A DNA stretch of 33,462 nucleotides from Candidatus Cloacimonadota bacterium (GTDB lineage Bacteria > Cloacimonadota > Cloacimonadia > Cloacimonadales > TCS61). Position numbers and translations under genes: made by a program. Under the pieces are notes generated by a model. It was not told the origin of the DNA, did not search any database, and saw only the letters and a list, made by a program, of their open reading frames with translations. Numbering within the stretch: position 1 is the first letter of the stretch; every line of letters begins with the position of its first letter. Where the stretch lies: positions 1 to 33,462 of the forward strand of contig JAIPGP010000039.1 of assembly GCA_021735645.1 (NCBI GenBank), in the 5' to 3' direction. Positions 9,234-33,350 of the stretch are shown one piece after another.

Positions 9234-10472
9234 GTGAAATTAAGCCTGTTTTTCCTGAAGAAATACTTCCGGTCACCACGTCAGGAATGGCGACGACCGG
9301 GTTCTCTGTTTATGGTGCTGGGTATCATTATCTCAGTAGCCACGCTCACAATTGCTTTCACCATATTTGATGGCTATGAACGCATGCTGAAAAAAACTAT
9401 TCTAAGCACTAATTCGCATGTTTATATTTTCAGTACCGGCAGAGATGATCTAACGTCAGCAGATTGCCAGCGGTTAAATGAATTCTTTGCTGCAAAGCCG
9501 GAAGTGAAGGCATCAGATGGCTTGATAATCAGTCAGGCAATGGCTACTGCAGGTAATACGAATACGAACAGCAAGGTGATAAGCTGCCAATTGCGAGGTT
9601 TGAACTGGCAGAAGCAGGAATTGCCGATCACCTACCGTGAATATGTGCAGAAAGGGAGCTGGCGGTTGGATGCAGAAAATGACGTGGTTGTTGGCAACCA
9701 GCTGGCGCAGCGTCTTGGTTTGGATACTGGTGACACTATTTATCTGGTAAGCCCTGCCCAGAACAGTTTAAGTCTTCTGGGACTACGTTCCCAGAGCCAT
9801 CCCTATAAAATAGAAGGATTATATCATAGTGGTATATATGAAAGTGACAGTCGGGTGGTATTTATGCAGCCGGGGCAAGCCTGGAAATTCAGTAACCAGC
9901 CTGGCAGGTATTCCCGCTATGAAGTAAAATTGAAACCTGAGCAAATAGACCGGGCAGATTACCTGGCATATATCTGGCAAAATGAACTGAATCTTGATTA
10001 TCAGATTTCCACCTGGCAGGACTTCAACAGCAGTCTTTTTAATCTGCTCAAATTGGAGAAGTGGGTATTATTTTTTATCTTAAGTTTTCTCATCGTGGTA
10101 GCATCATTTAATGTGGTATCATCTGTGAGCACTGAGATAATAGACCGCAGACGGGAAATAGGCATCTTGAAGACAATAGGTTTTTCCAATCGTAGCCTGA
10201 GACAGATATTATTGGGCAGAATTCTGGGCACAGGTGTGATTGCTATATTTACCGGAGAATTGCTGGGAATGCTGCTTGCCTGGTTTGCCAGCATTCAGGA
10301 TTTCTTTAAGTTAAAAGGAGATGTATATTTCCTTGATAAGATAAATGTCTATTTTTCCATTCCGGCAATGCTGCTGATACTGGCAGTGGCATTCATTATC
10401 ATCTATCTGGCAGCAGCACTGCCTCTGCGTAGATTGAACCGACTGGAAATCACTGAAATACTGCGAAGTTAA
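9234..10472 (+). CDS. LolC/LolE-type lipoprotein-releasing ABC permease
   Basis: This 412-residue inner-membrane protein has the MacB/FtsX-type layout. There is a cytoplasmic start (LSLFFLKKYFRSPRQ), a first membrane segment at about 22-46, a periplasmic domain to about 270, and three membrane segments near 272-300, 325-350 and 370-400. The FtsX signature is clear in 'IIDRRREIGILKTIGFSNRS'. Known family members extract lipoproteins from the inner membrane and hand them to the periplasmic carrier. Only one permease is present, so it may work as a homodimer. The GTG at 9234 is used; the overlapping ATG at 9232 is followed immediately by TGA. The ATPase gene follows after 12 bases. Confidence 0.88.
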   Translation: MKLSLFFLKKYFRSPRQEWRRPGSLFMVLGIIISVATLTIAFTIFDGYERMLKKTILSTNSHVYIFSTGRDDLTSADCQRLNEFFAAKPEVKASDGLIISQAMATAGNTNTNSKVISCQLRGLNWQKQELPITYREYVQKGSWRLDAENDVVVGNQLAQRLGLDTGDTIYLVSPAQNSLSLLGLRSQSHPYKIEGLYHSGIYESDSRVVFMQPGQAWKFSNQPGRYSRYEVKLKPEQIDRADYLAYIWQNELNLDYQISTWQDFNSSLFNLLKLEKWVLFFILSFLIVVASFNVVSSVSTEIIDRRREIGILKTIGFSNRSLRQILLGRILGTGVIAIFTGELLGMLLAWFASIQDFFKLKGDVYFLDKINVYFSIPAMLLILAVAFIIIYLAAALPLRRLNRLEITEILRS

Positions 10473-10484
10473 AAAGGAGTAGTA

Positions 10485-11156
10485 ATGGAGCTGGTAGCAG
10501 CAAAAGGAATCTGGAAGAGCTATCGCGAAACTGAAGGAAAACTGGAAATCTTAAAAGGGCTGGATATATATATTCAGCAGGGTGAGACAGTAGCTATCAC
10601 AGGAGAATCCGGCAGCGGTAAAAGCACGCTGCTTCATATTCTGGGTTTGCTTGATGAAGTAGATTGCGGAGAGATATTTTATAAAGGTGAATTGCTGGAT
10701 ACACGCAGTATTAAATCAGATGCATTCCGCAACAGCAAGCTGGGTTTTATCTTCCAATTTCATTATTTACTGGAAGATTTCACTGCTCTGGAAAATGTTG
10801 CACTACCTAATTTTTACCTGACTGGCAACCGCAAGGCTGCTGAGCAGAAAGCTGCCGAATTATTAGCCAGATTGAATCTCACTGGCAGAGGATCACATTA
10901 TCCTAACCAGCTAAGTGGCGGAGAACAACAGCGGGTGGCAGTAGCCCGGGCATTGATAAATGAACCTGATATTGTTTATGCAGATGAGCCAACCGGTAAT
11001 CTGGATCAAAGACACAGCACGGAGCTGGTGGATGTGCTGATAGAACTGAATGAAACCAGGGGTCAGACCTTTGTACTGGTTACGCATGACCAGCAGATAG
11101 CCGGCAGAATGCAGAAACATTATATCCTGGAGAACGGGGTTCTGAGAATCAGGTGA
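10485..11156 (+). CDS. lolD: LolD-type ABC transporter ATPase
   Basis: The 223-residue ATPase powers the upstream permease. It shows Walker A 'GESGSGKST' (residues 40-48), a Q-loop 'FIFQFHYLL', the signature 'LSGGEQQRVAVARAL' (from about residue 143), Walker B plus D-loop 'VYADEPTGNLD' and switch His in 'VLVTHD'. Length and motifs match the LolD/MacB ATPase family. AAAGGAG lies just before the ATG, and the gene sits between the permease and the TamB-like gene with gaps of 12 and 9 bases, so all three are probably cotranscribed. Confidence 0.92.
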   Translation: MELVAAKGIWKSYRETEGKLEILKGLDIYIQQGETVAITGESGSGKSTLLHILGLLDEVDCGEIFYKGELLDTRSIKSDAFRNSKLGFIFQFHYLLEDFTALENVALPNFYLTGNRKAAEQKAAELLARLNLTGRGSHYPNQLSGGEQQRVAVARALINEPDIVYADEPTGNLDQRHSTELVDVLIELNETRGQTFVLVTHDQQIAGRMQKHYILENGVLRIR

Positions 11157-11165
11157 TAAATAAAC

Positions 11166-14100
11166 ATGGCACTTCCCAATAAAAGACGCTGGTTATTGAT
11201 AATTATCGGATTAGTAGTACTGATCAATCTGGTCTATTTTGTCTTTATGCGTCTGAATATGAAAGACCGGCTGGTTCAGAAATATGTGGTAAGCTTTCTG
11301 GAAAACGCCAGTGGCGGTGATGTGAGTATTGGTGATGTAACATTTAGTGAGAAGTATTTACTGATAGAGGGTTTCAGGATAAATCTGCCGGAACGACAAC
11401 TTGAATTCAAAGCCGAGAGCATCCATATTGAATATGATCTGATGCAGTTATTATGGCGACGGGTAAAAAATCAGCCTTTTGCAGAAAGTATCTACGTTAA
11501 TAAACCATATATTAAGTTATTTATTGACCCCCGCAAGATGCACTCCAGCAAAGAAATAAGTAATAAACCACCACTGCCAATGCTGAGAAAGTATTTCCGC
11601 AAACTCAATATCTATGAAGGAGAAATCGAATTTGGGCTCGATGTGGATGTATATAAAATAGAAGAAAGAATATTTCACTTGAATGGTGAGATGCAAACCA
11701 GCAACGGAGTGAGTGCCCTGCTTTCAGGAAATACTGAAAATGGTGGAATTTTGCAGGCAAAAATTGATCTCAGCAGCGGCTGGTTCAATTCTCTTTCTGC
11801 TCAAGTACAGGATTACAGACCCAAAGAAATGTTCATAACCAAAATTGATACTTTGCAGGCACTTTATGATCTTAAATTTACCTATTTACCGGGTCTGATG
11901 ACTATTGATGCCGGAGTGAAGGATATATATCTGGAAGTGGCAGGCAGAAAGATATATGCAGACAGTCTTGATCTGGATGGTGACAGCCACTGCATAGAGT
12001 TCCGGATTGATGAACCAGTATTAGATGGCAATAAAGTAGAAGTATCAGGCAACCTGCTGAATACTTTCAGTTCCAGAATCGGAATAGATGCCAGATTTAA
12101 AGGCGACTCAATGAGTATATTGACTTATCTGCCAATTGTCAAAGGTACGGCAGATGTTCAGGGCACCATGCAGGGACGCTTCACTGATTTTCAGATCAAT
12201 GCCAGAGCAGAAAGTGACAGTCTGATAATAGCCGGACAGGCATTGCGCCAGGCAGAAGTAACTGCTGTGATAGGCAACCGGCAACTGGAATTTAATATTC
12301 AGCATCTGGAGTGGGAAAACAACCAGATCGACGCTTCGGGCTTTTTTGGTTATGACATGACATTCTACTCGCAGGCGAAAGTGGATTCATTTACTTATTC
12401 ATTTTCTGATATTGGTATAAAAGGTTCTCTGGTCACTGAATATGGCAATAAAACCCAGGCAAGCCCCTATCTGATTCTAAGTAATGCCACATTGCATACT
12501 CCCTGGACGGATATCGATAAGCTGGAGCTGAAAGCCGAATATAATTATCCTCAGATCAGTATTACCATGCACAGATTACACAATGACCTCTCACTGATGG
12601 GAAACTTCTATCTGCAGAATAACAGTTATGATGCCAAACTGGAAATGAGAAGATTTCAACTCGGTAAAACTCTTGATAATATCCTACTGCCCATCTGCAC
12701 AGGCAGCATATCCTGCTTCGGTACTCAAGATAAAATCTCATTAGACAGCAATCTTCGCTTCTATGACCAGCACTTTGGCAGTTTTGACGGGCGGATACAA
12801 GCCAGCGGAAGCCTGGACTTTCGCCAGCAGCAAAGCTTGCTGGAACTGCATACGACAAATGCCAAATATAATTATGAAAAGCTGCAAATAGACCTGAAAG
12901 CTGAGGGTAATCTGGACAGCATCGGGACAACTGAATTTAATCTTAATAATTTAATTCAGTTGGATGCCTCTTTTTTCTCTAAGCCTGAACCGGCTTTCAA
13001 ATTCTGCTTAAACGCTACTGAGCTTGATCCGAAAGATATTATGAGATACCTGGTCGAGCACAGCTCTCTGGATAACTATATTGGTAAGATAAAGCTTGAA
13101 CTGGAGGCAGACAGCCGGGCAGATGGAATATTCAAAGGCAGCATTCAAGCTAGAGAACTGCAGTTTGCCGGAACGGAGAAATTAGCACTCGATCTTAGTC
13201 TGCTAGGTGATAAGCAAAGAATCGATATTGCCTCGAGCAGAATCTTTTATCAGGATAAGAATCTGGGAAATGTGCAGGGAAATTTCTCACTTTATCCTAA
13301 AATGGAGGTTAATGTATGGGTTGATGTACCCAGCTTTGATCTAAAAAAACTATTTCCGCAAAAAGGAATAACTGGTACGGGTAATGCTTTCCTGGGCTAC
13401 AGCTTCACGCCGGCTGGAATTTGTTTTAATCTCCAGATGGAAGCTGAAAAATTGAATTATCAAGGTATATGGATAGATAAAGCAGAAGTGGATATCAGCC
13501 AGTTAGACAGTTTGCTGGTCATCAGAAAACTCCACTTCAAAGAAGGCAAAGCTAATTATCTGCAGGCTGAAGGTGAAATCGGCTTCAATATCATGAATTC
13601 CCGCTCCTATCAGGATACCAGCAGTTTACAACTGGAGTTCAGTGGTGATCTATTACGGGTACTGCAAAACAATCTCAGCTACGTGAAAGAAGGAAGAAGT
13701 CAAAGCTCTCTCAAGCTAAGCCTGGCAATGGGTGAAAACGGCTTTGATATTCACAGTATGCACTTTGATCTGAAAGGCAGAAAACTGTTGCTGAAAGACC
13801 AGCAGCAGCCCTTTAAAGATATTGATGTTCAAATGAGCATTGCTGAAAATGTCCTTAATATCCAGAATTTTGAGATCGGAATGGGATATGGAAAGCTGTT
13901 ATTAGAAAACAGCGTAGGATATAACGAGGAAGATATGTATCTGCACCAGTTAAATATCGGTCAAATATTGATATATACCTCCAGGGAAGGAGTGGAATTT
14001 CATGTTCCACGTTATACTGCCCCAAAATCTCTGGCACATCTGAAGATCAAAGGTAGAAACACCCACTACATGAGAATGTTTGTAGATGATGGAGAAGTGC

Positions 14101-15251
14101 TGCTGCGGGGAGATTTGATCCTGAGTGTGACTGATATCACCTATCCGCCGGATACGGCAAATCTTATGAACTGGGTAAATAGTTTCACCTCAGACATCCG
14201 GGAAAGCTGGAGTACAAAGAAAAAGAAAGAAGTAGTATTTGCGCAGGAGGATGAAGACCTGGAAGATTACACTGCTATTCCCATGAATTTTGACCTGCAT
14301 TTGCTTACTGATAACAATGTCCGCTATGTAACCTATCCCTTCAAAATAAATTTCAAGCCCGGTTCATATGTTTATCTTAGCTATAAAAATGATGAATTAT
14401 CTATTTATGACGCCAATTTCAGTGCTGAAGACGGCACAGTGGTACTGGTGGGAACTGAACTGCAAGTCGATAATATACTCGTGAACTATAATAATCTTGT
14501 GAATGAAGCCCGTCTCAATGCCGTGTTCAGCAGAAAAGTTGCCGATGGCACTCAAATCCAGCTGATTATCACCGATGAGGGTGAAGGTTCGTTTCCCAAT
14601 AATCTTACTATGGCTTTTAGCAGCGATAATGCTGATGACCGCACTGATACCGAAAAACTATTCCGGCTTCGCTATGGCAGAGGTCTGGATGATATCACCA
14701 GCACAGAAAGACAAAGCCTTTTCCAGGATGATCTTATCCAGACGGCTGGTGGTGAAATTGAAAACATGATCATCGATCCGGTGATTAACCAGTTTGAACT
14801 TTATGTGAGCAGACTGCTCAGAATAGATTATTTCCAGATGGAAACCAGCTTCATATATAACCTGCTTTCTTCAAACAGTGACCTTTATGGAAATGCCGAA
14901 GATCAGGATAAAAAGTATTCTGCGGATGCTCTGCTGGAAAATCTCTCCTTCAAAGCGGGTAAATATGTCCTCGATGACCTTTTCCTGAACTATAATGTTA
15001 CCTTCCAGAAAGTTTATGAAACTGACCTCACTACTGCCATGGGCGTTTATCACACGGTCTCTTTTAGATATGATATGCCTCTGGATATAAAATTTATTTA
15101 CGATTACCAGATTGATCCCTACGAAAAAGACAGTCATCAGTACAGATTCAGCCGAACTATTAAATTTAATAAAATGTCTGACCTCTACTTTAAAATATTC
15201 TACCCCTACTCCTGGAAACAAAAAATCAAAAATAACCACCAGAATTACTGA
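11166..15251 (+). CDS. AsmA/TamB-like inner-membrane-anchored protein (lipid or outer-membrane biogenesis)
   Basis: This 1361-residue protein has one N-terminal membrane anchor (residues 9-29), then a 'LVQKYVVSFLENASGGDVSI' segment typical of AsmA-like N-termini. A very long beta-rich repetitive body follows ('LSGNTENGGILQAKIDLSSG', 'VQGTMQGRFTDFQI'). The C-terminal region (about 1080-1290) has TamB-like features, including 'EDGTVVLVGTELQVDNI', 'FRLRYGRGLDDI' and 'QTAGGEIENMIIDPVINQFE'. Known TamB/AsmA-like proteins form a periplasm-spanning groove for phospholipid transport or support beta-barrel assembly. Linkage to LolCD suggests a shared envelope-building operon. Low sequence conservation in this family means the precise role is uncertain. 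Start is ATG at 11166 with AGGTGA upstream. Confidence 0.75.
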   Translation: MALPNKRRWLLIIIGLVVLINLVYFVFMRLNMKDRLVQKYVVSFLENASGGDVSIGDVTFSEKYLLIEGFRINLPERQLEFKAESIHIEYDLMQLLWRRVKNQPFAESIYVNKPYIKLFIDPRKMHSSKEISNKPPLPMLRKYFRKLNIYEGEIEFGLDVDVYKIEERIFHLNGEMQTSNGVSALLSGNTENGGILQAKIDLSSGWFNSLSAQVQDYRPKEMFITKIDTLQALYDLKFTYLPGLMTIDAGVKDIYLEVAGRKIYADSLDLDGDSHCIEFRIDEPVLDGNKVEVSGNLLNTFSSRIGIDARFKGDSMSILTYLPIVKGTADVQGTMQGRFTDFQINARAESDSLIIAGQALRQAEVTAVIGNRQLEFNIQHLEWENNQIDASGFFGYDMTFYSQAKVDSFTYSFSDIGIKGSLVTEYGNKTQASPYLILSNATLHTPWTDIDKLELKAEYNYPQISITMHRLHNDLSLMGNFYLQNNSYDAKLEMRRFQLGKTLDNILLPICTGSISCFGTQDKISLDSNLRFYDQHFGSFDGRIQASGSLDFRQQQSLLELHTTNAKYNYEKLQIDLKAEGNLDSIGTTEFNLNNLIQLDASFFSKPEPAFKFCLNATELDPKDIMRYLVEHSSLDNYIGKIKLELEADSRADGIFKGSIQARELQFAGTEKLALDLSLLGDKQRIDIASSRIFYQDKNLGNVQGNFSLYPKMEVNVWVDVPSFDLKKLFPQKGITGTGNAFLGYSFTPAGICFNLQMEAEKLNYQGIWIDKAEVDISQLDSLLVIRKLHFKEGKANYLQAEGEIGFNIMNSRSYQDTSSLQLEFSGDLLRVLQNNLSYVKEGRSQSSLKLSLAMGENGFDIHSMHFDLKGRKLLLKDQQQPFKDIDVQMSIAENVLNIQNFEIGMGYGKLLLENSVGYNEEDMYLHQLNIGQILIYTSREGVEFHVPRYTAPKSLAHLKIKGRNTHYMRMFVDDGEVLLRGDLILSVTDITYPPDTANLMNWVNSFTSDIRESWSTKKKKEVVFAQEDEDLEDYTAIPMNFDLHLLTDNNVRYVTYPFKINFKPGSYVYLSYKNDELSIYDANFSAEDGTVVLVGTELQVDNILVNYNNLVNEARLNAVFSRKVADGTQIQLIITDEGEGSFPNNLTMAFSSDNADDRTDTEKLFRLRYGRGLDDITSTERQSLFQDDLIQTAGGEIENMIIDPVINQFELYVSRLLRIDYFQMETSFIYNLLSSNSDLYGNAEDQDKKYSADALLENLSFKAGKYVLDDLFLNYNVTFQKVYETDLTTAMGVYHTVSFRYDMPLDIKFIYDYQIDPYEKDSHQYRFSRTIKFNKMSDLYFKIFYPYSWKQKIKNNHQNY

Positions 15252-15319: not shown

Positions 15320-16009
15320 TTAGAAGGCGAATCCGAATTTGAGGATTTCAATATCGAAAAAGATATCGCAGTCATTGGACGCTTCTTCCAGGAAGAGGAT
15401 AGAAGTAACTCCGTTCTCGAGGATGCAATCTTCCCCAATAAAATATCTACCGGCGCTGAGGCTGAAACCCCAGTTAAACCCGCGATAAGAAAAAGACCTC
15501 CAGCCGATGCCTGCTCCTACACCCCATTTAAAAGTGTTGTCGAAACCATACACGTTACTGTCTGATTCCAGGTAGGCAAAGCGGGTGAGAGCACTCATAA
15601 AAAAGCCGTTAGAAGTGTTTCCGGTAAACATTCTGATTCTGGCATCAGCATAAAATAGCTTATCAGTGCCAGCGTGAGAATCATAATAATCATCTTCCCA
15701 ATAGTAAGTTTCAATATCATGACTATAATAGTACCAGGGAACGTAGATTTCCATCATGGGTTTACCGAAATAGGAGAAACCTCCACTGAGTGTAGCGAGA
15801 TTATCTTTGATAGTGAGCAGGCGGACAAAATTAAATTCCACGCCCCAGGTTTTATCTGCCAGGGGGTCATTTTTGTACTGATCGTATAAGCGGTTAACTT
15901 TTTCACCGGTATCTTTAGATATCTTCAGCAGGGAATCAATTTTTGTATCTTCTGCTAATGCCATACTAACAAGCAGCGAAAAGAGAATGAGAAAGATAAT
16001 TTTCTTCAT
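15320..16009 (-). CDS. Small secreted protein, probable outer-membrane beta-barrel
   Basis: The 229-residue protein has a signal peptide (MKKIIFLILFSLLVSMALAE), a short charged helix (about 22-50), and then alternating aromatic strands such as 'WGVEFNFVRLL', 'LFYADARIRMFTG', 'GFFMSALTRFAYLES' and 'WGFSLSAGRYFIG'. It ends in 'EILKFGFAF', with the terminal Phe and alternating hydrophobics of barrel C-termini recognised by BamA. I do not recognise a specific family. The ATG at 16009 has GGAGAAATC upstream. The gene lies downstream of the C25 gene on the same strand, separated by a terminator, and converges on the TamB-like gene. Confidence 0.7.
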   Translation of the reverse strand: MKKIIFLILFSLLVSMALAEDTKIDSLLKISKDTGEKVNRLYDQYKNDPLADKTWGVEFNFVRLLTIKDNLATLSGGFSYFGKPMMEIYVPWYYYSHDIETYYWEDDYYDSHAGTDKLFYADARIRMFTGNTSNGFFMSALTRFAYLESDSNVYGFDNTFKWGVGAGIGWRSFSYRGFNWGFSLSAGRYFIGEDCILENGVTSILFLEEASNDCDIFFDIEILKFGFAF

Positions 16010-16069: not shown

Positions 16070-19000
16070 TTATTTTCTGGAATTAAGTTTTCTACCCTGT
16101 TCAATAGGGAACTGGTCGATGATACCCACAAAGTATTGCAGAATGAGTGAACCGTCATAGGCTTCCACAGTACCATTTCCATCCACATCTGAGCGGGTGA
16201 TACGCCATTCTTCCCAGGGCAGGGGAGCAACGGCTCCGGGATCGATGCCCACAAAATATTGCAGAGCAATGGAGGCATCAAAAGCTTCCACTATGCCATT
16301 TGCATCTACATCGCCATACATGATACCGCCAGAGGCAGGATTTACAGGAGTGAAGAGAATTGCTGTTTCGTCTGCCAGGGTGTGGGCAGTTTCCGGATAC
16401 ATATTGGCGAAAGTGATTTGCAGACCCTGAGTTCTATCGGGGCTTTCTAATCCTACAGTGGCATAGTTTTCTGCCTGGTCATAATTATTAACCTGCTGAT
16501 AGATAAATATAATTTCACCATCCCCGGTAGCAGTGGGATAGAATTCCGGGTCTCGCAGAACCACCTGGAAATATTGACGGTGGTTAGTGTTATATTCCAG
16601 TCTCATATTTTTCCATTCGAGCATGAATCTATGATTTTCTTCATCATACCAGAAATAGACATAGCCTTCGGAGAGGTCTTCCCAGAAGGGGCATACAAAG
16701 CCGCCAAAACCATAGCCGGAGGGAAGTGCTTTATTACGGAAGAACAGGGTATTTGTATTGCCGAAGGCGAAATATCCATTCTGGCAGACTGTGATACGGT
16801 CAAAGGTTTCACCATAATATTGAAAGTCAAAAGGCAGGTCAAGCTGGTCTAACCAGCCGTCATCAGTTTCGTGCATATGCGGTTGATTAAGGTAGCTTCC
16901 TTCTCCACCCGAATATGGTGAGATATCGAGCCATTCATATACCGGAACTTCAAAATCACCGTTGTCCTGGCTTTCTATTGCCATATAGCCATAGCTGTCA
17001 AAGGTGGGGCTGGCTTCACTGATCTCGCCAATGGGAATGGTGAGTGGAATAACCTGAACCAGTTCAGCACCTTCATAAAGAGAAAGCTGCAGGTTGGCAA
17101 CTTGTCCGGTGATCACATCTGCGGGTAAGAGTTCAAATAGAGATGAGTTTTCACTGGAGTTTCCCGGGGAAATGGAATAATAGGTGGATTCGCTGCTGGA
17201 GACTACTGCGTTGTTATCCAGGCTGAATAACACTGCATTGATAGCTCCTGTAGCAGTTGAACCGCTGTTATATAATTCAATATGTAGAGGACAGACAGTA
17301 CCCTGTAGCAGGAAACCGCTACTGTTTTCAATATCATAACCGGCGAAAGCAACTTCCTGAGATTGAGTTTCCAGCTCTATCAGACTGTTCGAATTGCCTA
17401 AGCTGGAGCTGATATTGCAGAATATTTGACCATAGCGTCCATCAATCCATTGATTATCGGTGTTGATAGTAAAAGTTAATGCAGTTTCATCATCACCAGC
17501 CAGTAAATCCAGATTAGCGGAGCTGACAGGTAGAAAGAAAACACCATCATAATTTAATAATTCAATTGTGATGCCATAAGCACTTGAGCCGGCATAATTA
17601 TGCAGCATCAGTTCCAGTTCAAAGCTGTTTCCGGCGGCAGGAGTGATATTTGTGGAATATTCTGTGATACCCAGCACATCAGCGGCTAATACTTCAATAT
17701 CTTCAGTGGCAGGAATATAGCCGTATCGGGAAGCAGTGACAGTGTATTCACCGAGTGGCATTTCCACGGGGATATAAGCATTGCCATTATTGTTAGTAAT
17801 GTCAGTAGCCAGCAAGCCATCATCAGATGTGACAGCAATGCGGAATCCTTCTACTTGATCATCATCGCTGCTGATAGTTATTTCCAGATAATTTTGTCCG
17901 ATCGGAATTTCTGTGTCTAATTCTAATTCGCAGTTTTTGGGAACATCCGTCCAGATTTCTACAGTGGGGTCGCCTAGAAGGTTATATACATAGAAATAGA
18001 ACTGGTCAGAATCAAGAGCATCGCCCCAGCTGTGACAGAAGGGGAAGTTATTATACATTTCCATTTTGCCGCGCAGCATCATGGCAGAAGTGCCAAATAT
18101 CCCTTCCTGAGTGATGCCCTGATATATACCTAAGTCATTACAGTTATTAAAAGGTGTTTTAGTATCATGCTCGCTGGGTCCGATGAAAGCGATAGCCCCG
18201 CGGGGATTACTGGCAGAGCCGGAGACCAGCCATGTTTCACCAAAGCAGGTGGAGTAGTTGTTATCAGCAAAATCACCACCTCCGCAGACGATACTGGTAA
18301 CCATTGGCAGCATCCAGCCATTGGAGAGGGCATTTATATCGCTGATCTCGAACATGTGTCCCCCAGAAGCACCATTCCAGTAATATGTACTGCCAAAGCC
18401 GCGATAATTAAGAAAAGTATAGCCGGTATTGATCAAGTTGCGCAATTGAGTGTGACTGCTCTGATAAGGAGCAATAAAAGTATCTATCTGGGTATAAGTG
18501 TAATCGAGCAGTTTTTCCCCTGCACAAATCACGGTTTCACGTCCGGAGAAATATTCTGAACCCCAGTTGTCTTCAATCACGCTCATCATCAAACCCTTTG
18601 TGTACCAGTTTGTATTGGTCATATAGGGATTACTTTCATAGTTGATTATCTTGGCGATAGCGGTGGCTAATTGAGTAGTGTTCTGGATTGATATTCTGCC
18701 TATCAGAACATCGGGGAAATAATCAGTTCCTTCCAGCAGAGCATAATTATGGTCTGTAACATCCCAGGGATACATATATCCTTCACAGTAGAAGGCGGGC
18801 AGACTGTAACTGCCACTCACATCACCCACCAGCAGAACATGGTCAGGCGGATACTCCCAGTTATCATAGGCATTCTGGATATAATTCTGGATACTGCTGC
18901 TGCTGCTGCCGGTTTCTGTGGTAGTGGCAATAATGGTGTGGAATCCCATTTTTTGTTTCCATTCTGCCAGTGTTTCCAGATATGAAACAACCGAAGAGCG

Positions 19001-19657
19001 GCTAATAATCAGCAGACTGCCTGCATAATCATTATCATTACGATAATTATCTGCTCCAAATATCCATGACTGTGCCAGTTTATCAAAGGCGGCAGAACCG
19101 GGCAGTTCCCTGCCTGTTTGAGGATTAGTATAATTTGAATAGTCCACGGCGAGTTGAAGATCAAGGTTTGTGATCAGACGAATCTTTTGCAGGGCTGGAT
19201 TATATTGCACTGCAGCTATACTCACCTGCGAAAAACGGTAGTTACGCATGATTGATGGCTCGCTGATAGAGACAATTTCGCTGGGAAACCACTGGTTAGC
19301 GCGGTTATCCTGCCATTGGGTAAGATCTTCCCAGCCACTGGGAATAATTGGGTTTTCGATGTCAATTTCCTTTACATCATAAGTAAATTTGCTGATTTCC
19401 CAGTTACCATTATCAGGCAGAGCGATAATTCTGGTATAATGTGGTAGATCAGGATCACCTATACTGGCTCCCTGCTGCAAACCTTCCACTTCCAAGGTAG
19501 TAAACCGTCCTAATTCCACTGATAGCGTGGATTTAGTGAGCTCCCCAGGCTCTCCGGTTATCTGCAGAACATCGCCAGCCAGATTAATTTCATAGCTGCT
19601 TAAGGCTAAGGTAAATAATAAAAATGTAAGCCCTAATATAAATTTCATTTTTGGCAT
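16070..19657 (-). CDS. Secreted peptidase C25 (gingipain-like) protein with dockerin-like C-terminus; catalytic His apparently replaced
   Basis: The 1195-residue product begins MPKMKFILGLTFLLFTLALS (signal peptide). The ATG at 19657 is preceded by AAAGGAGG; an upstream in-frame start at 19693 has no such site. Residues about 25-200 resemble the C25 propeptide region and about 215-570 the caspase-like C25 domain ('LLIISRSSVVSYLETLAEWK', 'HVLLVGDVSGSYSLP', 'ISIVG'-like strands, 'NLLGDPTVEIW'). The catalytic Cys is in 'SIVCGGGDF' (Cys458). The expected GHG His motif reads 'NYRGFGS', with Phe421 in the His position. Beta-sandwich domains follow. Residues about 1115-1180 form a dockerin-like pair of calcium loops ('GDVDANGIVEAFD', 'SDVDGNGTVEAYD'). 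No T9SS-type tail is present. It is either a protease variant or a non-catalytic relative. Confidence 0.82.
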   Translation of the reverse strand: MPKMKFILGLTFLLFTLALSSYEINLAGDVLQITGEPGELTKSTLSVELGRFTTLEVEGLQQGASIGDPDLPHYTRIIALPDNGNWEISKFTYDVKEIDIENPIIPSGWEDLTQWQDNRANQWFPSEIVSISEPSIMRNYRFSQVSIAAVQYNPALQKIRLITNLDLQLAVDYSNYTNPQTGRELPGSAAFDKLAQSWIFGADNYRNDNDYAGSLLIISRSSVVSYLETLAEWKQKMGFHTIIATTTETGSSSSSIQNYIQNAYDNWEYPPDHVLLVGDVSGSYSLPAFYCEGYMYPWDVTDHNYALLEGTDYFPDVLIGRISIQNTTQLATAIAKIINYESNPYMTNTNWYTKGLMMSVIEDNWGSEYFSGRETVICAGEKLLDYTYTQIDTFIAPYQSSHTQLRNLINTGYTFLNYRGFGSTYYWNGASGGHMFEISDINALSNGWMLPMVTSIVCGGGDFADNNYSTCFGETWLVSGSASNPRGAIAFIGPSEHDTKTPFNNCNDLGIYQGITQEGIFGTSAMMLRGKMEMYNNFPFCHSWGDALDSDQFYFYVYNLLGDPTVEIWTDVPKNCELELDTEIPIGQNYLEITISSDDDQVEGFRIAVTSDDGLLATDITNNNGNAYIPVEMPLGEYTVTASRYGYIPATEDIEVLAADVLGITEYSTNITPAAGNSFELELMLHNYAGSSAYGITIELLNYDGVFFLPVSSANLDLLAGDDETALTFTINTDNQWIDGRYGQIFCNISSSLGNSNSLIELETQSQEVAFAGYDIENSSGFLLQGTVCPLHIELYNSGSTATGAINAVLFSLDNNAVVSSSESTYYSISPGNSSENSSLFELLPADVITGQVANLQLSLYEGAELVQVIPLTIPIGEISEASPTFDSYGYMAIESQDNGDFEVPVYEWLDISPYSGGEGSYLNQPHMHETDDGWLDQLDLPFDFQYYGETFDRITVCQNGYFAFGNTNTLFFRNKALPSGYGFGGFVCPFWEDLSEGYVYFWYDEENHRFMLEWKNMRLEYNTNHRQYFQVVLRDPEFYPTATGDGEIIFIYQQVNNYDQAENYATVGLESPDRTQGLQITFANMYPETAHTLADETAILFTPVNPASGGIMYGDVDANGIVEAFDASIALQYFVGIDPGAVAPLPWEEWRITRSDVDGNGTVEAYDGSLILQYFVGIIDQFPIEQGRKLNSRK

Positions 19658-19804
19658 AAAACCTCCTTTCACATAAAAACAATATATAAGCAATTTTTAT
19701 TCCTTTTTTTGTCAAATAGAAATTAGACCTAGAGAAAATTATTGGATTGACATGTTTTCAGAATTTCTATGATTAGGGTAGCGAAGAAAAAATGGGGGTT
19801 TTTG
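19658..19804. promoter_or_regulatory. Divergent promoter region of the C25 and selenoprotein genes
   Basis: The 147-base gap serves two divergent genes. For the minus strand, TTGACA (19731-19726 read in reverse) precedes TTATAT at a long 20-base spacing, and AAAGGAGG (about 19668-19661) is the ribosome binding site. For the plus strand, TTGACA (19747-19752) and TATGAT (19768-19773) are 15 bases apart, and GGGGG (19795-19799) precedes the ATG at 19805. Shared control of the pair is plausible. Confidence 0.4.
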
Positions 19805-20992
19805 ATGAAGCGGATTTTGACTATTGGTGTATTACTGTTTATCAGTTTCCTGTCTGCATATAGTATTGGAGATACTGTGGGAGACCATTCCTGGACGGAT
19901 AATAATGGAGAATACCACAGTGTTCATGAGTTGGTGGATAGTGGCAGAGTAATTGTATTTTTCTGGGGCGAGAACTGGTGAGGGGGTTGCGTTGCGGCAG
20001 CGCCGCAGCTCAATAGCTGGTGGAATAATGTCAATCAGGATCAGGCTTATCTGTTATGTTCCTATAACTGGAACAGTTATTTTTATGATATGCCCTGGTC
20101 AGCGCAATTAGATAATTATTACAATAATTTTGGTAATGGCTATGTACCCTATTTTTCTGTAATTGGGGCAGATTATGAATATCTGAGTGGGGGTAACAAT
20201 GTTTCCACTGCCATAAGTGCTGCTAATAATGCCATGCTGGGCATGGTCAATATATCCGTTGTCAATCCTATTTCAAATGTGATATTAGAGGCAAATTCCT
20301 CTACTACAATAGACATCAGTGATACATTCATGCATTCCCAGGGTGTTGCCATGACCTATTCCATCACTGCAAATACTAATCCTGACTGCTGTTCGGCTTC
20401 CATCTCAGGCACTACGATATATCTGGATGCCCTGGTTGCAGGGGGATTCTCCAATATTACGGTAACAGCTTGTGCCGGAAATTTATCTGCTGACGATACT
20501 TTCCTGGTTACAGTTCTTGATATATACCCTGCTCCGTTAAATCCCGAAGGAATAGTTATCTATCCCGAAGTATCACTTTCCTGGGAAGAACCGCAAGCTC
20601 TGGCACTTATCACCGGCTGGAATATATACCGGAATAATGAACTGATTGCCTCTTTGTCTGATACACAGTTATCTTATAATGACCTGCCGGAAGATGGCAG
20701 CTATATTTATACAATCCGAACTCAATATCTGCTGGTGGAATCCAGTCCCAGTATCCCGATAGATATTGAAATCTGGAATACAATTGGAGACGTGGATGCC
20801 AGCCAGGAAATTGATAGTTATGATGCTTCGATGATTCTGCATTATGTGGCTGGTATAGAGCCTGGCGGTCTGCCTTTTCCCTGGGTGGAATGGCGCATTG
20901 AACGGGCAGATATAGATGGGAACGGTCTGATTGAAGCCTATGATTGTGCTCTGCTGCTTCAATACATAGTGGGTATTATTGACGAATTATAG
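19805..20992 (+). CDS. Secreted thioredoxin-fold selenoprotein candidate (UxxC) with Ig-like, FN3 and dockerin-like domains
   Basis: If the single in-frame TGA (19979-19981, codon 59) is read as selenocysteine, the product is 395 residues. Residues 1-19 are a signal peptide (MKRILTIGVLLFISFLSAY). Residues about 20-150 form a thioredoxin fold: 'VIVFFWGENW', TGA, 'GGCVAAAP'. The TGA takes the place of the first Cys of WCxxC, Cys62 is the resolving Cys, and Pro67 matches the conserved helix proline. 'GNGYVPYFSVIG' provides the cis-proline strand. Then come an Ig/cadherin-like domain (about 155-240), an FN3-like domain (about 243-320) and a dockerin-like pair of calcium loops (about 326-395, 'GDVDASQEIDSYD', 'ADIDGNGLIEAYD'). 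The whole downstream part keeps the same frame. ATG 19805 has GGGGG upstream; an earlier ATG at 19769 is poorly placed. The alternative is a recent nonsense mutation of a Cys codon, or a sequencing error. Confidence 0.8.
19982..20009 (+). promoter_or_regulatory. Candidate bacterial SECIS hairpin after the in-frame TGA
   Basis: GTTGCGGC (19991-19998) pairs with GCCGCAGC (20002-20009) as an 8-bp stem with one T-G wobble, closing a three-base AGC loop. The loop begins 18 bases after the TGA and has G as its second base. From memory, bacterial SECIS models require a loop about 16-37 bases downstream of the UGA with a G in its first two positions. The run of GC-rich codons here (GCG GCA GCG CCG) contrasts with the AT-rich rest of the gene, as expected if RNA structure is selected. 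Confidence 0.65.
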
Positions 20993-21280: not shown

Positions 21281-21736
21281 TTAATCCGAGTAGAGGTAGG
21301 CTGCTCCTTCATTTTTACCATCATTGATAGTAGTAAAGAATTTCTCGTTCATATCCAGTTCAAAACTTTCTGGTAGAACATATTGAGCAGTGAGTACTAC
21401 GGAATTATCATCACTGATCTTGAGTTTAGCATAGTTATAAACAAAGCCGTTCAGATTGATGAGCCTGGTCTGGGAGCAGACTATAAAAGCCTGAGGATTA
21501 CCAATAGACATGGGAGCAAAATATTCCCAGACGTCAATTGGCATACCACCAATGGCATTAGGGGCAGTGGATTCTTCATTATCAGAGATAAGTTTACAAT
21601 TACCATATTCAATTACCAGACTGGCATCTTCACCCTGACGTAGGGCTGTGAGCAATTCAGCAAAATTCTTGATCTGCTTGGCGGATAAAGACATTATTGC
21701 CAAAATCAGCAGTATAACGAGCATTACTTTTTTCAT
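21281..21736 (-). CDS. VirK-family periplasmic protein
   Basis: This is a 151-residue protein with signal peptide MKKVMLVILLILAIMSLSA. The motifs 'FAELLTALRQGEDASLVIEY', 'APNAIGGMPIDVWEYFAP', 'VYNYAKLKISDDNSVVLTA' and 'ELDMNEKFFTTINDGKN' match the VirK family, whose members are about 145 residues and were named after a gene of the Agrobacterium virulence regulon. The family's biochemical function is not established. The ATG at 21736 has AAGAGG upstream, while a GTG two codons earlier overlaps that site and is less likely. The gene stands alone and is flanked on both sides by copies of the same hairpin repeat. Confidence 0.72.
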   Translation of the reverse strand: MKKVMLVILLILAIMSLSAKQIKNFAELLTALRQGEDASLVIEYGNCKLISDNEESTAPNAIGGMPIDVWEYFAPMSIGNPQAFIVCSQTRLINLNGFVYNYAKLKISDDNSVVLTAQYVLPESFELDMNEKFFTTINDGKNEGAAYLYSD

Positions 21737-21924
21737 AAACACCTCTTACATTTTTTATAGACTTATATTTTGAGAGCGGAGTATTTAGGCAACGTTTTTA
21801 TATTAAGGTGTTGTTGCTGATTTATCAGAAGTAAAACTGCTCTTTCCTGGAAAGAAAACTAAAACATTTAGAAACAGGACAGGCGTTATTTCTAATATAT
21901 GCCTTACGCGATAATTCTTAATCA

Positions 21925-27491: not shown

Positions 27492-29653
27492 TGAACCTAA
27501 AAACGGAAATAGTTATTATGGCTTTATTATATTGCCTGACTTTATCGGCAGAGCGGGTATCCGGATACGTAACTGATGAGCAGGGTCAGCCTCTGGATCG
27601 GGTTTTAGTGAAAAGCTCAGATGATTTTGCCATAACCCGGGAAGATGGAATATATCATTTGAGTGTGACTGTGCCAGATACGGTGCTTTTCCATAAACTG
27701 GGATATGCCGAAATGCGTCTGGCAGCAGATTCAATACCCTTAAAACTGGTTCTGAATAGAACTGCTCTCAGTATTGCCGGCAGAGATGTGGCAGGCAGCC
27801 GTTATAATGACCAGCCGTTAGTTCGCAGACTGATCACAATATCAGATAATCAGGTAGAGAACGAATCACTGGCGGGTTTCATTGCAGCAGAAACGGGATT
27901 ACAGCTAAACGGCACACGCACAGCAGGGACGCAGCAGACCTTGAAAGTGCCGGGTTATGAAAGCAGGCATACGCTGGTGATGCTGGATGGGATTCCGCTG
28001 AACATTGCTGGTGAGGAATTTGACCTTTCGCGAGTACCGCTCAGTTTAATAGCCGAGATAGAGATAATATCTGCTGCAGGCACTGCCGGTTCAGGAGGGA
28101 TGGGTACTGTGATCAATCTGAAAACCGGACAGCCCAGGCAGCCGGTCGAACTGGAAACTGCAATTAGTTATGGCTCATTTGACTATTATACTGCTAATCT
28201 CAGATACAGCAGAATTTTTCAGCGTTTCACCTGGCAGACTAATATCAGTTATCAGCAGGCGGAAAACGATTTTACTTATCCGGCACCTGAAAACTGGAAT
28301 CTGGTAGAGGAAGAATTGACCAGGGAAAACAATTCTTTCCGGCAGGCAGATATTTCTGCCTTTTTCACTTATCGCACGCAGTGGGGTGACTGGGATATAA
28401 AAGCATATTACACAGACTTTATACGCATGCTGCCGGGTGCGATAAATAATCCGGAGCAATTTTACAAAGCTCAGATCTCGGGAGAGATTTTTAAAGGACA
28501 ATTTAGCTGGAATTATGACAGGCAGAAGCTGAACTATTCCTGGAAGAGCTGGTATAATCAGGAAAACACAGTATATGATAATACACGCCTTGATGAAGCA
28601 TATATCAATAACATATATTATTATATCTGCGGTAAGAATAATAAAAAGAGCAGCGGTATCAGACCGCAGATCAACTGGAAACCAGTCTCAAATATAAACC
28701 TGAAGCTGGGTGCTGAACAGCTTTATGAAAGTTATAAATATGAAGAAACAGTGCACCAGCTAAATTCTCAACCCGAAGTTAAAAGAACTTCCCAGGCAAT
28801 ATTTTCCGAACTGGCTCTGAATCTGGAAAAGGGCAGGTTTTCTCCGTGGCTGAAGCTGGACAGTCGGTATGATGTTACTGAGGATTTTTCACCAGAAACA
28901 AGCGGAGGTGCTTTTTGCGGGATAGCTTATGAATCACAGCTAAAACTCTCAGCCTCGTTTGGCAGACTCTGGAGCTATACCCTGCCCTCATTCTACAGCC
29001 TCTACTGGCAGGGCAATGCGGAAGCAATCGGAAATCCTGACCTGAAACCGGAAACCAGCAGCGGATATAAAACGGCTGCCAGTCTGCAGTATCTGGATAA
29101 CATGCTCAGTTTTTCCTGTAGAAAAGATGAATTGCAGGATATGATAATCTGGATTGAATCCGTCAACAAAGCCTGGAAACCTGTCAATATTGGTGAAGCT
29201 CAGGTTACTAATCTGGAATATATGGGAGAATTGACTCCAGCGAAAAATATTAATTTTAAGGGCTCATATACTCAGACAATTTCAGCAGATAAAACCAGGC
29301 TGGAAAATGGAGAAGCTTCGGCTTATTATAATAAAGAACTTATCTACACTCCTGATTATCAGGGCAATTTAGGTATAAACTGGTCCCCGGCACCTTGCAG
29401 TTTTAATATTAACATGCAGTTTACCGGCAGTCAATGGACTACTCGTGACCAATTGACCCAGCAGAAACTTTTGGCAGAATATCAGTTATACAACTGCTCT
29501 GCGGGTTGGAACATGAAATATCGAAACTGGCTGATCACCTGGCAGCTCCAGATCAATAATCTCTTGGATGAACACTATAATATCTATGAATATATGCCGC
29601 AGCCCGGCAGAAATTACAGTTTTACTATTAAATTAAAAAAGAGGATAAGATGA
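27491..29653 (+). CDS. TonB-dependent outer-membrane receptor (BtuB-like)
   Basis: The 720-residue protein starts with a short signal segment (about 1-18). A carboxypeptidase-regulatory-like beta domain follows at about 20-90 ('VSGYVTDEQGQPLDRVLVKS'), then a plug at about 105-215 ('FIAAETGLQLNGTRTAGTQQ', 'VMLDGIPLN', 'IAEIEIISAAGTAGSGGMGT'). The rest is a 22-strand-type barrel ending 'YSFTIKLKKRIR', with the usual 'LDEHYNIYEYMPQPGRNY' C-terminal signature. The N-terminal extra domain is common in Bacteroidota-type receptors. Coupling to btuD suggests uptake of cobalamin or cobinamide into the periplasm. The next gene starts 4 bases before this one stops. Confidence 0.88.
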   Translation: MNLKTEIVIMALLYCLTLSAERVSGYVTDEQGQPLDRVLVKSSDDFAITREDGIYHLSVTVPDTVLFHKLGYAEMRLAADSIPLKLVLNRTALSIAGRDVAGSRYNDQPLVRRLITISDNQVENESLAGFIAAETGLQLNGTRTAGTQQTLKVPGYESRHTLVMLDGIPLNIAGEEFDLSRVPLSLIAEIEIISAAGTAGSGGMGTVINLKTGQPRQPVELETAISYGSFDYYTANLRYSRIFQRFTWQTNISYQQAENDFTYPAPENWNLVEEELTRENNSFRQADISAFFTYRTQWGDWDIKAYYTDFIRMLPGAINNPEQFYKAQISGEIFKGQFSWNYDRQKLNYSWKSWYNQENTVYDNTRLDEAYINNIYYYICGKNNKKSSGIRPQINWKPVSNINLKLGAEQLYESYKYEETVHQLNSQPEVKRTSQAIFSELALNLEKGRFSPWLKLDSRYDVTEDFSPETSGGAFCGIAYESQLKLSASFGRLWSYTLPSFYSLYWQGNAEAIGNPDLKPETSSGYKTAASLQYLDNMLSFSCRKDELQDMIIWIESVNKAWKPVNIGEAQVTNLEYMGELTPAKNINFKGSYTQTISADKTRLENGEASAYYNKELIYTPDYQGNLGINWSPAPCSFNINMQFTGSQWTTRDQLTQQKLLAEYQLYNCSAGWNMKYRNWLITWQLQINNLLDEHYNIYEYMPQPGRNYSFTIKLKKRIR

Positions 29654-30897
29654 TAAAAAAAACCATATTATTTATATTACTAACTTTCTGTTTCCTGCTT
29701 AATGCTGCGGTGCTTTATATATTGAATAGCGGCAGTGAAACGCTTTCCAGGATCGATCTGGAAACGGGAAATGTTAATAATGCCTTTGCTGCTTTGGGCT
29801 ATATGCCAAACCGGTTTGTCTGCAACACGCAGTATATATATGTGGCAAATTCAGGTGACAACAGCATTCAGAAGATAGAAAGCAGCACAGGGGCTACGCT
29901 CACCAATATTTTTCTGGGCTTGAATGTTAATCCCTATGACCTGATCCTGACAGAGGATTATCTTTTTGTATCCGGGGGATTTTCTAATCAGATATACAAA
30001 ATAGAACTGGCAACTGATACAGTAATTGATCAGGTAACAGCAGGCAATAATCCGGCAGGCATGGCAATTAGTGGCAATAAACTCTATGTGGGCAACACGG
30101 ACTACATGACAAACTATAATAATTGCTCCGTTTCGGTTATTGATCTGGAAGCATATGAGGTTATCGCTACAATTCCCACAGCAACAAATCCGCAGTACTT
30201 GCTGGCAGATGGAGATCAGGTTCATGTTTCCTGCACCGGTGACTGGTCAGACGTTATGGGGACGATCCAGATTATTTCAATTTCCACAGATACTATAGTA
30301 CACACCATAGAAATGGGTGGTTATTGCGGCGACCTTACGATCACTCCAGAGGGCATTGTGTATATTGGAGACGCCATGAATGCAGGAGTTTATGCTTATA
30401 ACGCTGCTGACTGGACAGTACTCTATTCTCCTGCTGAGCCTTTTCTACCTGGAGGCAGTGTTATAGAAGCGGATAATACAAACCTGGCAGTTCTCGGTGG
30501 CGAATGGGGACAAAATTTCACGGTCAATCTCTATGAGCTCAATGAGACACACATCTCTGATTTTCAAGTGGGACTTTATGCCATAGATATGAAATTCCAG
30601 CTCCAGCAGTCTTCAACAGACGAAAATTATGTTACTGAAGCTCATGAAGTGACTACATATCCAAATCCTTTCTACAATACGGTAACTTTTAGAACCACCG
30701 ATTCCCGCAGTCAGATAGAGACCATCAAAATATATGATATCAGAGGCAGATTAGTAAAAAATATCACCAGCCCAATGCTACCTGTCTGGGATGGTAAAGA
30801 TAATTCCGGGTTGCCAGTTCCCTCTGGAATTTATCTCTCAATTGTGAAAACTGCCGCTAATTCCTCAACTGCTATCCGCCTGATAAAAATGAAATAA
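29650..30897 (+). CDS. YncE/YVTN-like beta-propeller with T9SS-type tail; candidate BtuG-like surface cobalamin-binding protein
   Basis: The 415-residue protein has a signal peptide (about 1-19), then YVTN-type blades: 'LYILNSGSETLSRIDLETGN', 'YIYVANSGDNSIQKIE', 'DYLFVSGGFSNQIYKIELAT', 'NKLYVGNTDYMTN' and 'CSVSVIDLEAYEVIATIPTA'. From residue 337 it has a sorting tail ('YPNPFYNTVTF', 'IKIYDIRGRLV', 'SGIYLSIVKT'). It overlaps the receptor gene by 4 bases and is therefore in the btuD-receptor operon. In Bacteroides, BtuG is a surface beta-propeller lipoprotein that binds cobalamin very tightly and caps BtuB. The same pairing here, with a secretion tail replacing a lipobox, suggests an analogous role. 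Binding is inferred from fold and context only. Confidence 0.78.
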   Translation: MIKKTILFILLTFCFLLNAAVLYILNSGSETLSRIDLETGNVNNAFAALGYMPNRFVCNTQYIYVANSGDNSIQKIESSTGATLTNIFLGLNVNPYDLILTEDYLFVSGGFSNQIYKIELATDTVIDQVTAGNNPAGMAISGNKLYVGNTDYMTNYNNCSVSVIDLEAYEVIATIPTATNPQYLLADGDQVHVSCTGDWSDVMGTIQIISISTDTIVHTIEMGGYCGDLTITPEGIVYIGDAMNAGVYAYNAADWTVLYSPAEPFLPGGSVIEADNTNLAVLGGEWGQNFTVNLYELNETHISDFQVGLYAIDMKFQLQQSSTDENYVTEAHEVTTYPNPFYNTVTFRTTDSRSQIETIKIYDIRGRLVKNITSPMLPVWDGKDNSGLPVPSGIYLSIVKTAANSSTAIRLIKMK

Positions 30898-32447: not shown

Positions 32448-33350
32448 ATGGAAATACTGCAAAAAACTCGTAAACCCGTCAAGAAAAATCGTGTATTTAA
32501 TGGTTTAACCGTCACGAATCCTAATTCTGCTGGTGTAGACATTGGCTCTCGATATCACTGGGTAGCTGTTGCACCACACTTAATGCCTTATAATGTTCGA
32601 AAATTCTCAACCTTTACTGTTGATTTGCATGAAATCTGCAAATGGCTCAAAGAATGCAAAGTTGAATCTGTTTGTATGGAATCAACTGGTGTTTACTGGA
32701 TACCATTATATGACTTGCTTGAAGAATATGGCTTTGTAGTTTTTTTATGCAATGCAAATCAAGCAAAAAATCTTCCTGGACGTCAGAAAACAGATTATCT
32801 TGACTGTGTCTGGATGCAAAAATTACACTCTTATGGTTTACTGAATAATTCATTTATTCCTAAACTTGCTATTCGTGATTTCCGCAACTTGATGAGGTAT
32901 CGTGAAAAGCTTACGCAAGACAAATCTCGTTATGTGCTCAGGATGCAAAAATTACTAACTCAAATGAATGTCCTCTTGCACAAAGTATTATCAGACATTA
33001 CAGGTAAAACAGGAATGTCAATTATCAAGGCAATAATTGCAGGAAATACAGAACCTGAACAATTACTGAAATTGAAAGTTTATAAAATCAAAGCTTCTGA
33101 TGAAACATTCCTGAAAGCATTACAAGGCAATTATGATACTTCTTTAATCAAATTACTAAATTTTGAACTAAAACAATACGAGGCATCCGTTTCCTTAATC
33201 TCTGAGGTAGATAAGGAAATAAATTTCACCTTACGCAATATTCCTATCGCTGATTTAAATGACAATACAGAACTATCAAAATTATCAGAAAAAGATTTGC
33301 TTATTGCTTATACTGGCGTAGATTTAACTGCAGAACACCTGACCTCATAA
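32448..33350 (+). CDS. IS110-family transposase, truncated (N-terminal DEDD domain only)
   Basis: The 300-residue product carries the RuvC-like DEDD domain of IS110 recombinases: Asp31 in 'GVDIGSRYHWVAV', Glu78 in 'CMESTGVYW', and Asp116/Asp119 in 'GRQKTDYLDCVWM'. A coiled region ('LIKLLNFELKQYEASVSLIS') follows. Family members then continue from an 'YTGVDLTAIDGI'-like segment into the Transposase_20 domain with the catalytic serine and reach about 400 residues. Here the protein ends 'YTGVDLTAEHLTS', so that domain is missing and the recombinase should be inactive. Ribosome binding site AAAGGAG. Codon use is more A/T-rich than that of the neighbours, in line with acquisition by transfer. Confidence 0.85.
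   Translation: MEILQKTRKPVKKNRVFNGLTVTNPNSAGVDIGSRYHWVAVAPHLMPYNVRKFSTFTVDLHEICKWLKECKVESVCMESTGVYWIPLYDLLEEYGFVVFLCNANQAKNLPGRQKTDYLDCVWMQKLHSYGLLNNSFIPKLAIRDFRNLMRYREKLTQDKSRYVLRMQKLLTQMNVLLHKVLSDITGKTGMSIIKAIIAGNTEPEQLLKLKVYKIKASDETFLKALQGNYDTSLIKLLNFELKQYEASVSLISEVDKEINFTLRNIPIADLNDNTELSKLSEKDLLIAYTGVDLTAEHLTS

What the first reader, a model, noticed from the sequence alone, without database searches (positions are those of the whole stretch)
16070..20992. Divergent C25 protein and selenoprotein share a nearly identical dockerin-like tail
Seen: both C-termini have two calcium loops joined by a similar linker (P-W-x-E-W-R-I-x-R-x-D), and both end in a 'QY-VGI-D' helix. Three other secreted proteins in the window use the PNPF/PNPY T9SS-type tail instead. 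Inference: two separate surface-delivery or assembly systems coexist, and these two proteins may dock to the same partner, with the thioredoxin servicing the C25 protein or its targets.
Basis: partly seen in the sequence, partly recalled or inferred. Interest (0 to 1): 0.72.

Follow-up and report, generated by a model that had tools for sequence, protein, structure and literature searches.

The report
Dockerin tails replacing T9SS secretion tails
Two neighbouring secreted proteins of a Candidatus Stygibacter bacterium end in the plug (dockerin) of a plug-and-socket system whose sockets (cohesins) sit on giant proteins carrying a type IX secretion tail; relatives of the same two proteins carry that tail themselves, so the plug appears to have replaced the export tag.

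Summary
The tails are real: both are Pfam Dockerin_1 domains in a genome with 32 of them. They are not specially alike (57% identity; family mean 54%). The divergent gene pair is not conserved: in G088 and G082 the C25 ortholog keeps other neighbours without the selenoprotein gene. So pairing and 'the thioredoxin services the C25 protein' fail, and this C25 subfamily has also lost the catalytic His. The shared-partner idea survives: the genome encodes 18 above-cut-off cohesin domains. Dockerin and T9SS are not separate systems: 18 dockerins are C-terminal on proteins without a T9SS tail, many of them enzymes; 14 lie in a dockerin-shortened cohesin-T9SS triad; and 8 of 9 complete cohesin proteins end in a T9SS tail. 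In four families tested (this C25, the Sec-thioredoxin, PAD, M14) the dockerin sits where relatives carry a T9SS tail, in at least three lineages. Best reading: dockerin cargo of a T9SS-displayed cohesin scaffold, the dockerin supplying the surface address in trans. A cellulosome-like system in Ca. Stygibacter was already reported (PMC8542988). New here: the tail replacement, the triad, and a dockerin-bearing selenoprotein with strong UGA-recoding evidence. Whether assembly precedes export is untested.

The parts
16070..19657 (-). C25 (gingipain-fold) secreted protein with signal-peptide-like N-terminus, prodomain, C25 domain, and C-terminal dockerin; no T9SS tail
   Evidence: PF01364 E=1e-58, PF08126, PF00404; ATG start inferred from orthologs
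17957..19012 (-). Peptidase_C25 domain; Cys kept (SIVCGGGDF) but the gingipain His position is Phe (NYRGFGS)
16133..16318 (-). C-terminal dockerin type I domain of the C25 protein
   Evidence: PF00404 29.0 bits; the PDB match of this stretch is the ScaB dockerin 4uyp_B
19805..20992 (+). secreted Sec-containing thioredoxin-like protein with C-terminal dockerin; no T9SS tail
   Evidence: translation with TGA=U; AhpC-TSA/Redoxin/Thioredoxin weak, Dockerin_1 above cut-off
19979..19981 (+). in-frame TGA read as selenocysteine (motif U-G-G-C)
   Evidence: nearly all family members in the phylum carry exactly one in-frame TGA; SelB and tRNA-Sec in the genome
19982..20020 (+). putative bacterial SECIS region; Ala-Ala-Ala-Pro codons frozen as GCG GCG GCG CCG in the family (GCG GCA GCG CCG here, 19994-20005)
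   Evidence: synonymous-codon uniformity 0.90-1.00 against a mean of 0.46 and a maximum of 0.70 elsewhere; no supported covariation
20786..20968 (+). C-terminal dockerin type I domain of the Sec protein
   Evidence: PF00404 30.4 bits
2527..2757 (+). T9SS type A sorting tail of the 505-2769 protein (contrast: no dockerin)
   Evidence: TIGR04183 44 bits
30658..30888 (+). T9SS type A sorting tail of the 29650-30897 protein (contrast: no dockerin)
   Evidence: TIGR04183 42.4 bits

Best explanation
Both proteins are cargo of one genome-wide cohesin-dockerin display system. They enter the periplasm through a Sec signal peptide (inferred from sequence), fold a calcium-binding C-terminal dockerin (shown by homology), and bind cohesin modules of scaffold proteins that carry the T9SS C-terminal tail (cohesins and tails shown; binding inferred). 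The dockerin has taken the place of the cargo's own T9SS tail, so the surface address is supplied in trans by the scaffold (replacement shown by comparison; function inferred). They are neighbours by chance; each is an independent member of an 18-protein set of cargo that includes many enzymes (C25, M14, GH18, GH57, PAD, CotH-like, pullulanase-like, Sec-thioredoxin). The Sec-thioredoxin would bring a disulfide-active site to the displayed complex rather than serve its gene neighbour.
For: 32 dockerins and 18 above-cut-off cohesins in the genome. Terminal-dockerin proteins have no T9SS tail (0 of 18); complete cohesin proteins nearly all do (8 of 9; Fisher p=4e-6; 6 of 7 if two proteins with sub-cut-off cohesin matches are left out), and 11 of 12 further complete cohesin proteins outside the genome also do (G082 5 of 6, G087 3 of 3, G088 2 of 2, G115 1 of 1; my tally). 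Tail replacement: Sec-thioredoxin homologs with complete ends carry T9SS tails except the window and G082 copies; C25 orthologs at 44-46% identity end in T9SS tails, with dockerin only in G000, G088 and G082 (dockerin clade 100/100); PAD and M14 homologs show the same, with separate replacements in G091 (PAD) and G116 (M14). A PAD-dockerin gene is followed by two cohesin genes, the second with a T9SS tail, in all four genomes of the clade. T9SS core SprA_N present and at least 150 T9SS tails. T9SS is known to move folded proteins (PMC9251779).
Against: No binding data; cohesin specificity is unknown. G116 (24 dockerins, 1 cohesin hit) and G091 (21 and 2) have few recognised cohesins, so there the partner is unidentified. 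Some cohesin proteins lack T9SS tails (the 154-157 aa autonomous cohesin of the PAD operon; a 251-aa lipoprotein-like one in G082). Signal peptides were judged by eye.
Confidence: 0.72

Rival explanations
1. The dockerins are mainly intramolecular structural domains: calcium-stabilised ends that pack on an adjacent cohesin-like module, with no intermolecular docking.
For: 14 of 32 dockerins are followed by a shortened cohesin and then a T9SS tail. The dockerin plus adjacent module is predicted as one confident unit (pTM 0.86 twice). The dockerin-cohesin-T9SS triad is widespread in FCB phyla, and many Cloacimonadota genomes with a single dockerin carry it on a T9SS-tailed protein.
Against: The other 18, including both window proteins, have no cohesin beside the dockerin and, where tested, sit where relatives have a T9SS tail. 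Multi-cohesin proteins of up to about 4,900 aa exist without any dockerin of their own.
Confidence: 0.13
2. The C25 protein and the selenoprotein are a functional pair: the thioredoxin services the C25 protein or its targets on a shared partner.
For: Divergent neighbours with the same tail class.
Against: The pair is broken in both relatives that could test it; the tails are no more alike than random pairs; the C25 subfamily lacks the catalytic His.
Confidence: 0.04
3. Loss of the T9SS tail leaves the terminal-dockerin proteins in the periplasm, docked to periplasmic cohesins, rather than on the surface.
For: An autonomous single-cohesin protein with a signal-peptide-like start and no T9SS tail is conserved in the PAD operon of four genomes; a lipoprotein-like cohesin occurs in G082.
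Against: Most complete cohesin proteins carry T9SS tails, and several cargo families act on polymers, expected outside the cell.
Confidence: 0.11

Closest known systems
Ca. Stygibacter cellulosome-like system (PMC8542988, 2021)
   Same: Same genus: a G088 contig matches in length a record named Ca. Stygibacter frigidus, and the G087 scaffold read from its MKR start is 3,755 aa (my count), the published scaffoldin length. C-terminal dockerins on GH18, GH57, S8 and C25 proteins and a scaffoldin with cohesins and a CTD were reported there.
   Different: In the section read that paper does not describe tail replacement, the dockerin-shortened cohesin-T9SS class, M14 or PAD cargo, or a selenoprotein, and does not discuss how dockerin proteins cross the outer membrane.
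Clostridial type I cellulosome
   Same: Dockerin sequence and predicted fold: a relative's dockerin matches the Acetivibrio ScaB dockerin at 46% identity and Z 13.4, which is also the best PDB match of the window C25 tail; scaffold proteins with several cohesins.
   Different: Diderm host; cohesin proteins end in T9SS tails; cargo is rich in peptidase-family proteins; no cellulase was seen among the cargo scanned.
Planctosome of Nemodlikiaceae (PMC6461901)
   Same: Cohesin-dockerin complex proposed for polypeptide degradation, including an M14 carboxypeptidase, in a diderm.
   Different: No T9SS in the proposed model; anchoring proposed through a lamin-tail domain.
T9SS type A cargo (TIGR04183/PF18962)
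   Same: The same enzyme families carry this tail in relatives.
   Different: The window proteins have no such tail; a dockerin is in its place.

Membership tests
Dockerin type I (PF00404) | two calcium-loop/helix repeats scoring above the family cut-off | tested here: met
Dockerin type I (PF00404) | binds a cohesin | not testable with these tools
   needs a binding assay
Cellulosome-like cohesin-dockerin complex | multi-cohesin scaffold protein in the same genome | tested here: met
Cellulosome-like cohesin-dockerin complex | several enzymes bearing dockerins | tested here: met
Cellulosome-like cohesin-dockerin complex | physical assembly | not testable with these tools
   no experiment available
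T9SS cargo | C-terminal T9SS sorting domain on the two window proteins | tested here: not met
   no PF18962 or TIGR04183 match in either; T9SS core gene SprA_N is present
Selenoprotein | in-frame UGA conserved in homologs | tested here: met
   nearly all homologs that span the site have exactly one TGA; the one listed without a stop carries neither U nor Cys there
Selenoprotein | SelB and tRNA-Sec in the genome | tested here: met
   SelB 319 bits, tRNA-Sec 58.3 bits
Selenoprotein | SECIS hairpin after the UGA | tested here: inconclusive
   strong synonymous-codon freeze, but no covariation support and single-sequence fold z = -0.8
Peptidase family C25 | sequence family | tested here: met
Peptidase family C25 | catalytic His-Cys dyad | tested here: not met
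   His replaced by Phe, Cys kept
Cohesin (for the module after class-B dockerins) | homology to cohesin | tested here: met
   hhalign against dockerin-adjacent cohesins P = 5e-6, probability 86%; same position holds a Pfam cohesin in relatives; no Pfam cohesin match of its own, and the structural match alone is not decisive, Z 7.4

The most novel reading that the evidence does not exclude
A trans-acting T9SS address: dockerin-tagged enzymes bind cohesins of T9SS-tailed scaffolds in the periplasm and cross the outer membrane as hitchhikers through the SprA translocon, the dockerin having repeatedly replaced the T9SS tail in evolution.
Probability: 0.3. Interest if true: 0.85.

Novelty: new variant of a known kind. 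Interest (0 to 1): 0.62.

Why it matters
How dockerin proteins of a diderm cross the outer membrane is not addressed in the published account read here. Repeated replacement of a T9SS tail by a dockerin in the same enzyme families gives a direct, testable answer: the export and anchoring tag can be supplied by a binding partner. It would join cellulosome assembly to type IX secretion and suggest a modular way to display enzymes.

Tried and rejected
Treating the pair as an operon-like module: rejected on synteny. 'Nearly identical tails': rejected on the all-pairs comparison. Separate specificity for class-A and class-B dockerins: recognition residues do not differ visibly. Module after class-B dockerins against the genome's own cohesins alone: not significant with the first alignment (probability 0.5%) and weak with the larger one (15%); resolved only through dockerin-adjacent cohesins of relatives. 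RNAalifold on the SECIS region: no covariation. Searches for papers on T9SS with piggyback transport, and on dockerin with T9SS, returned no paper whose title or abstract describes this mechanism; only a few hits were read.

Full report
What is there. The window is contig C32 of a 3.77-Mb genome. The C25 protein (16070-19657, -) and the thioredoxin-like protein (19805-20992, +, with an in-frame TGA) both end in Dockerin_1 domains.

Is the pair special? No. The genome has 32 dockerins. The two tails are 57% identical against a mean of 54%, and 33% of all pairs are at least as alike. In G088 and G082 the C25 ortholog (74% and 69%) keeps neighbours shared with the window (the large gene of window 11166-15251, TamB-like by eye, in both; the gene of 15320-16009 in G088; the 9234-11156 ABC-type pair in G082), but the selenoprotein gene is not there; the G082 selenoprotein ortholog (66%) lies on another contig.

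Genome-wide anatomy. Dockerins fall into two classes. Class A (18): dockerin near the C-terminus, no T9SS tail. Domains found include C25 (3), M14 (3), GH18, GH57, pullulanase X25, PAD_porph, CotH and the Sec-thioredoxin; several others have no catalytic domain recognised. Class B (14): dockerin, a shortened cohesin, then a T9SS tail; the eight scanned carry mostly non-catalytic domains plus one C25 protein. Classes were typed by the PNPF motif, with Pfam tail matches where scanned. Cohesins: 18 above cut-off, on proteins of up to 4,756 aa and one longer frame cut by a contig end. In the window's genome 8 of 9 complete cohesin proteins end in a T9SS tail, one of them with a variant motif (PNPM); none of the 18 class-A proteins does (Fisher p=4e-6). 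Two of the nine (C5, C123) rest on sub-cut-off cohesin matches; without them the count is 6 of 7.

Cohesin proteins elsewhere (tally made by me from that output, complete frames only, counting G082:C50 once). G082 has 5 of 6 with a T9SS tail, the exception being a 251-aa lipoprotein-like protein; G087 has 3 of 3, G088 2 of 2, and G115, outside the clade, 1 of 1. The frame found for G087:C37 begins inside a longer one, but its C-terminus is complete. Eight further frames run off a contig end and were left out. The small autonomous cohesins of the PAD operon are counted apart.

Tail replacement. Sec-thioredoxin: window and G082 end in dockerin; the other homologs with a complete C-terminus end in T9SS-type tails. 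C25: orthologs at 44-46% identity align up to residue about 1118, just before the dockerin, then continue into a T9SS tail or a longer chain ending in one; dockerin only in G000, G088 and G082, which form a 100/100 clade (deep branching around it is open, so the direction of change rests on the breadth of T9SS-tailed homologs). PAD: dockerin in G000, G087, G088, G082 and G091; dockerin plus T9SS tail in G059; nearly all others whose ends were reached have T9SS-type C-termini, some recognised by me from the sequence because the PNPF regex missed them. M14: dockerin in G000, G087, G088, G082 and G116; others T9SS. G091 and G116 lie outside the Stygibacter-G082 group, so replacement arose at least three times or spread horizontally.

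A conserved cohesin-dockerin operon. PAD-dockerin, a 154-157-aa single cohesin, and a cohesin protein with T9SS tail follow each other in G000, G087, G088 and G082.

The class-B module. Against dockerin-adjacent cohesins of relatives, hhalign gives P=5e-6 and probability 86%; most of those relatives match Pfam cohesin above cut-off and, as a profile, scaffold cohesins (99%). AlphaFold2 predicts dockerin plus module of a relative with pLDDT 92 and pTM 0.86, and a relative with a full cohesin at 89 and 0.86. High pTM suggests a fixed arrangement; interface contacts were not inspected. The dockerin part matches the ScaB dockerin (Z 13.4, 46% identity), and the relative's cohesin matches cellulosomal cohesins (Z about 11.8).

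Selenocysteine. Nearly all homologs spanning the site have exactly one TGA; the exception listed has serine there. SelB and tRNA-Sec are present. Codons +5 to +8 are frozen (GCG GCG GCG CCG, 0.90-1.00 uniformity against a mean of 0.46 elsewhere). A hairpin is plausible but not supported by covariation.

C25 catalysis. Aligned to gingipain R, His of GHG is Phe in the window; Cys is kept. Ortholog sequences printed show F, A, Y, T or C at that place, so this subfamily is probably not a canonical peptidase.

Literature. The Ca. Stygibacter cellulosome-like system, with C25-dockerin and a 3,755-aa scaffoldin with a CTD, is published (PMC8542988). The G087 scaffold read from MKR is 3,755 aa by my count.

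Verdict. Observation confirmed, pairing rejected, shared-partner idea supported, and the more interesting result is tail replacement.

Noticed in passing
window 17957-19012 (-): This C25 subfamily replaces the gingipain catalytic His by F, A, Y, T or C while keeping the Cys; another C25 protein of the genome (C110, 5226-9134) keeps GHG.
   Followed up: partly
window 19805-20992 and homologs L082-L100: A phylum-wide family of secreted Sec-thioredoxins with long C-terminal extensions, most ending in T9SS tails; frozen GCG GCG GCG CCG codons after the UGA.
   Followed up: partly
L036 8775-9239, L150 3936-4409, L151 3530-4003, L234 2922-3392: Autonomous single-cohesin protein (154-157 aa) without T9SS tail between a PAD-dockerin gene and a cohesin-T9SS gene, conserved in four genomes; could be a periplasmic holder for dockerins (speculation).
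   Followed up: partly
L138-L145: Many Cloacimonadota genomes have a single dockerin, on an M14 protein that also ends in a T9SS tail; a possible source of the expanded dockerins.
   Followed up: partly
L206-L233: Dockerin-cohesin-T9SS-tail triads in Bacteroidota, Ignavibacteriae, Balneola, Kryptoniota and Zixiibacteriota.
   Followed up: partly
L161: A MAG named Chryseobacterium gleum carries a dockerin plus class-B-like module; the name may be wrong.
   Followed up: no
window 21281-21742 (-): Small protein with a sub-cut-off VirK match next to the selenoprotein gene.
   Followed up: no
window 32448-33350 (+): Protein resembling an IS110-type transposase (from memory, not tested).
   Followed up: no
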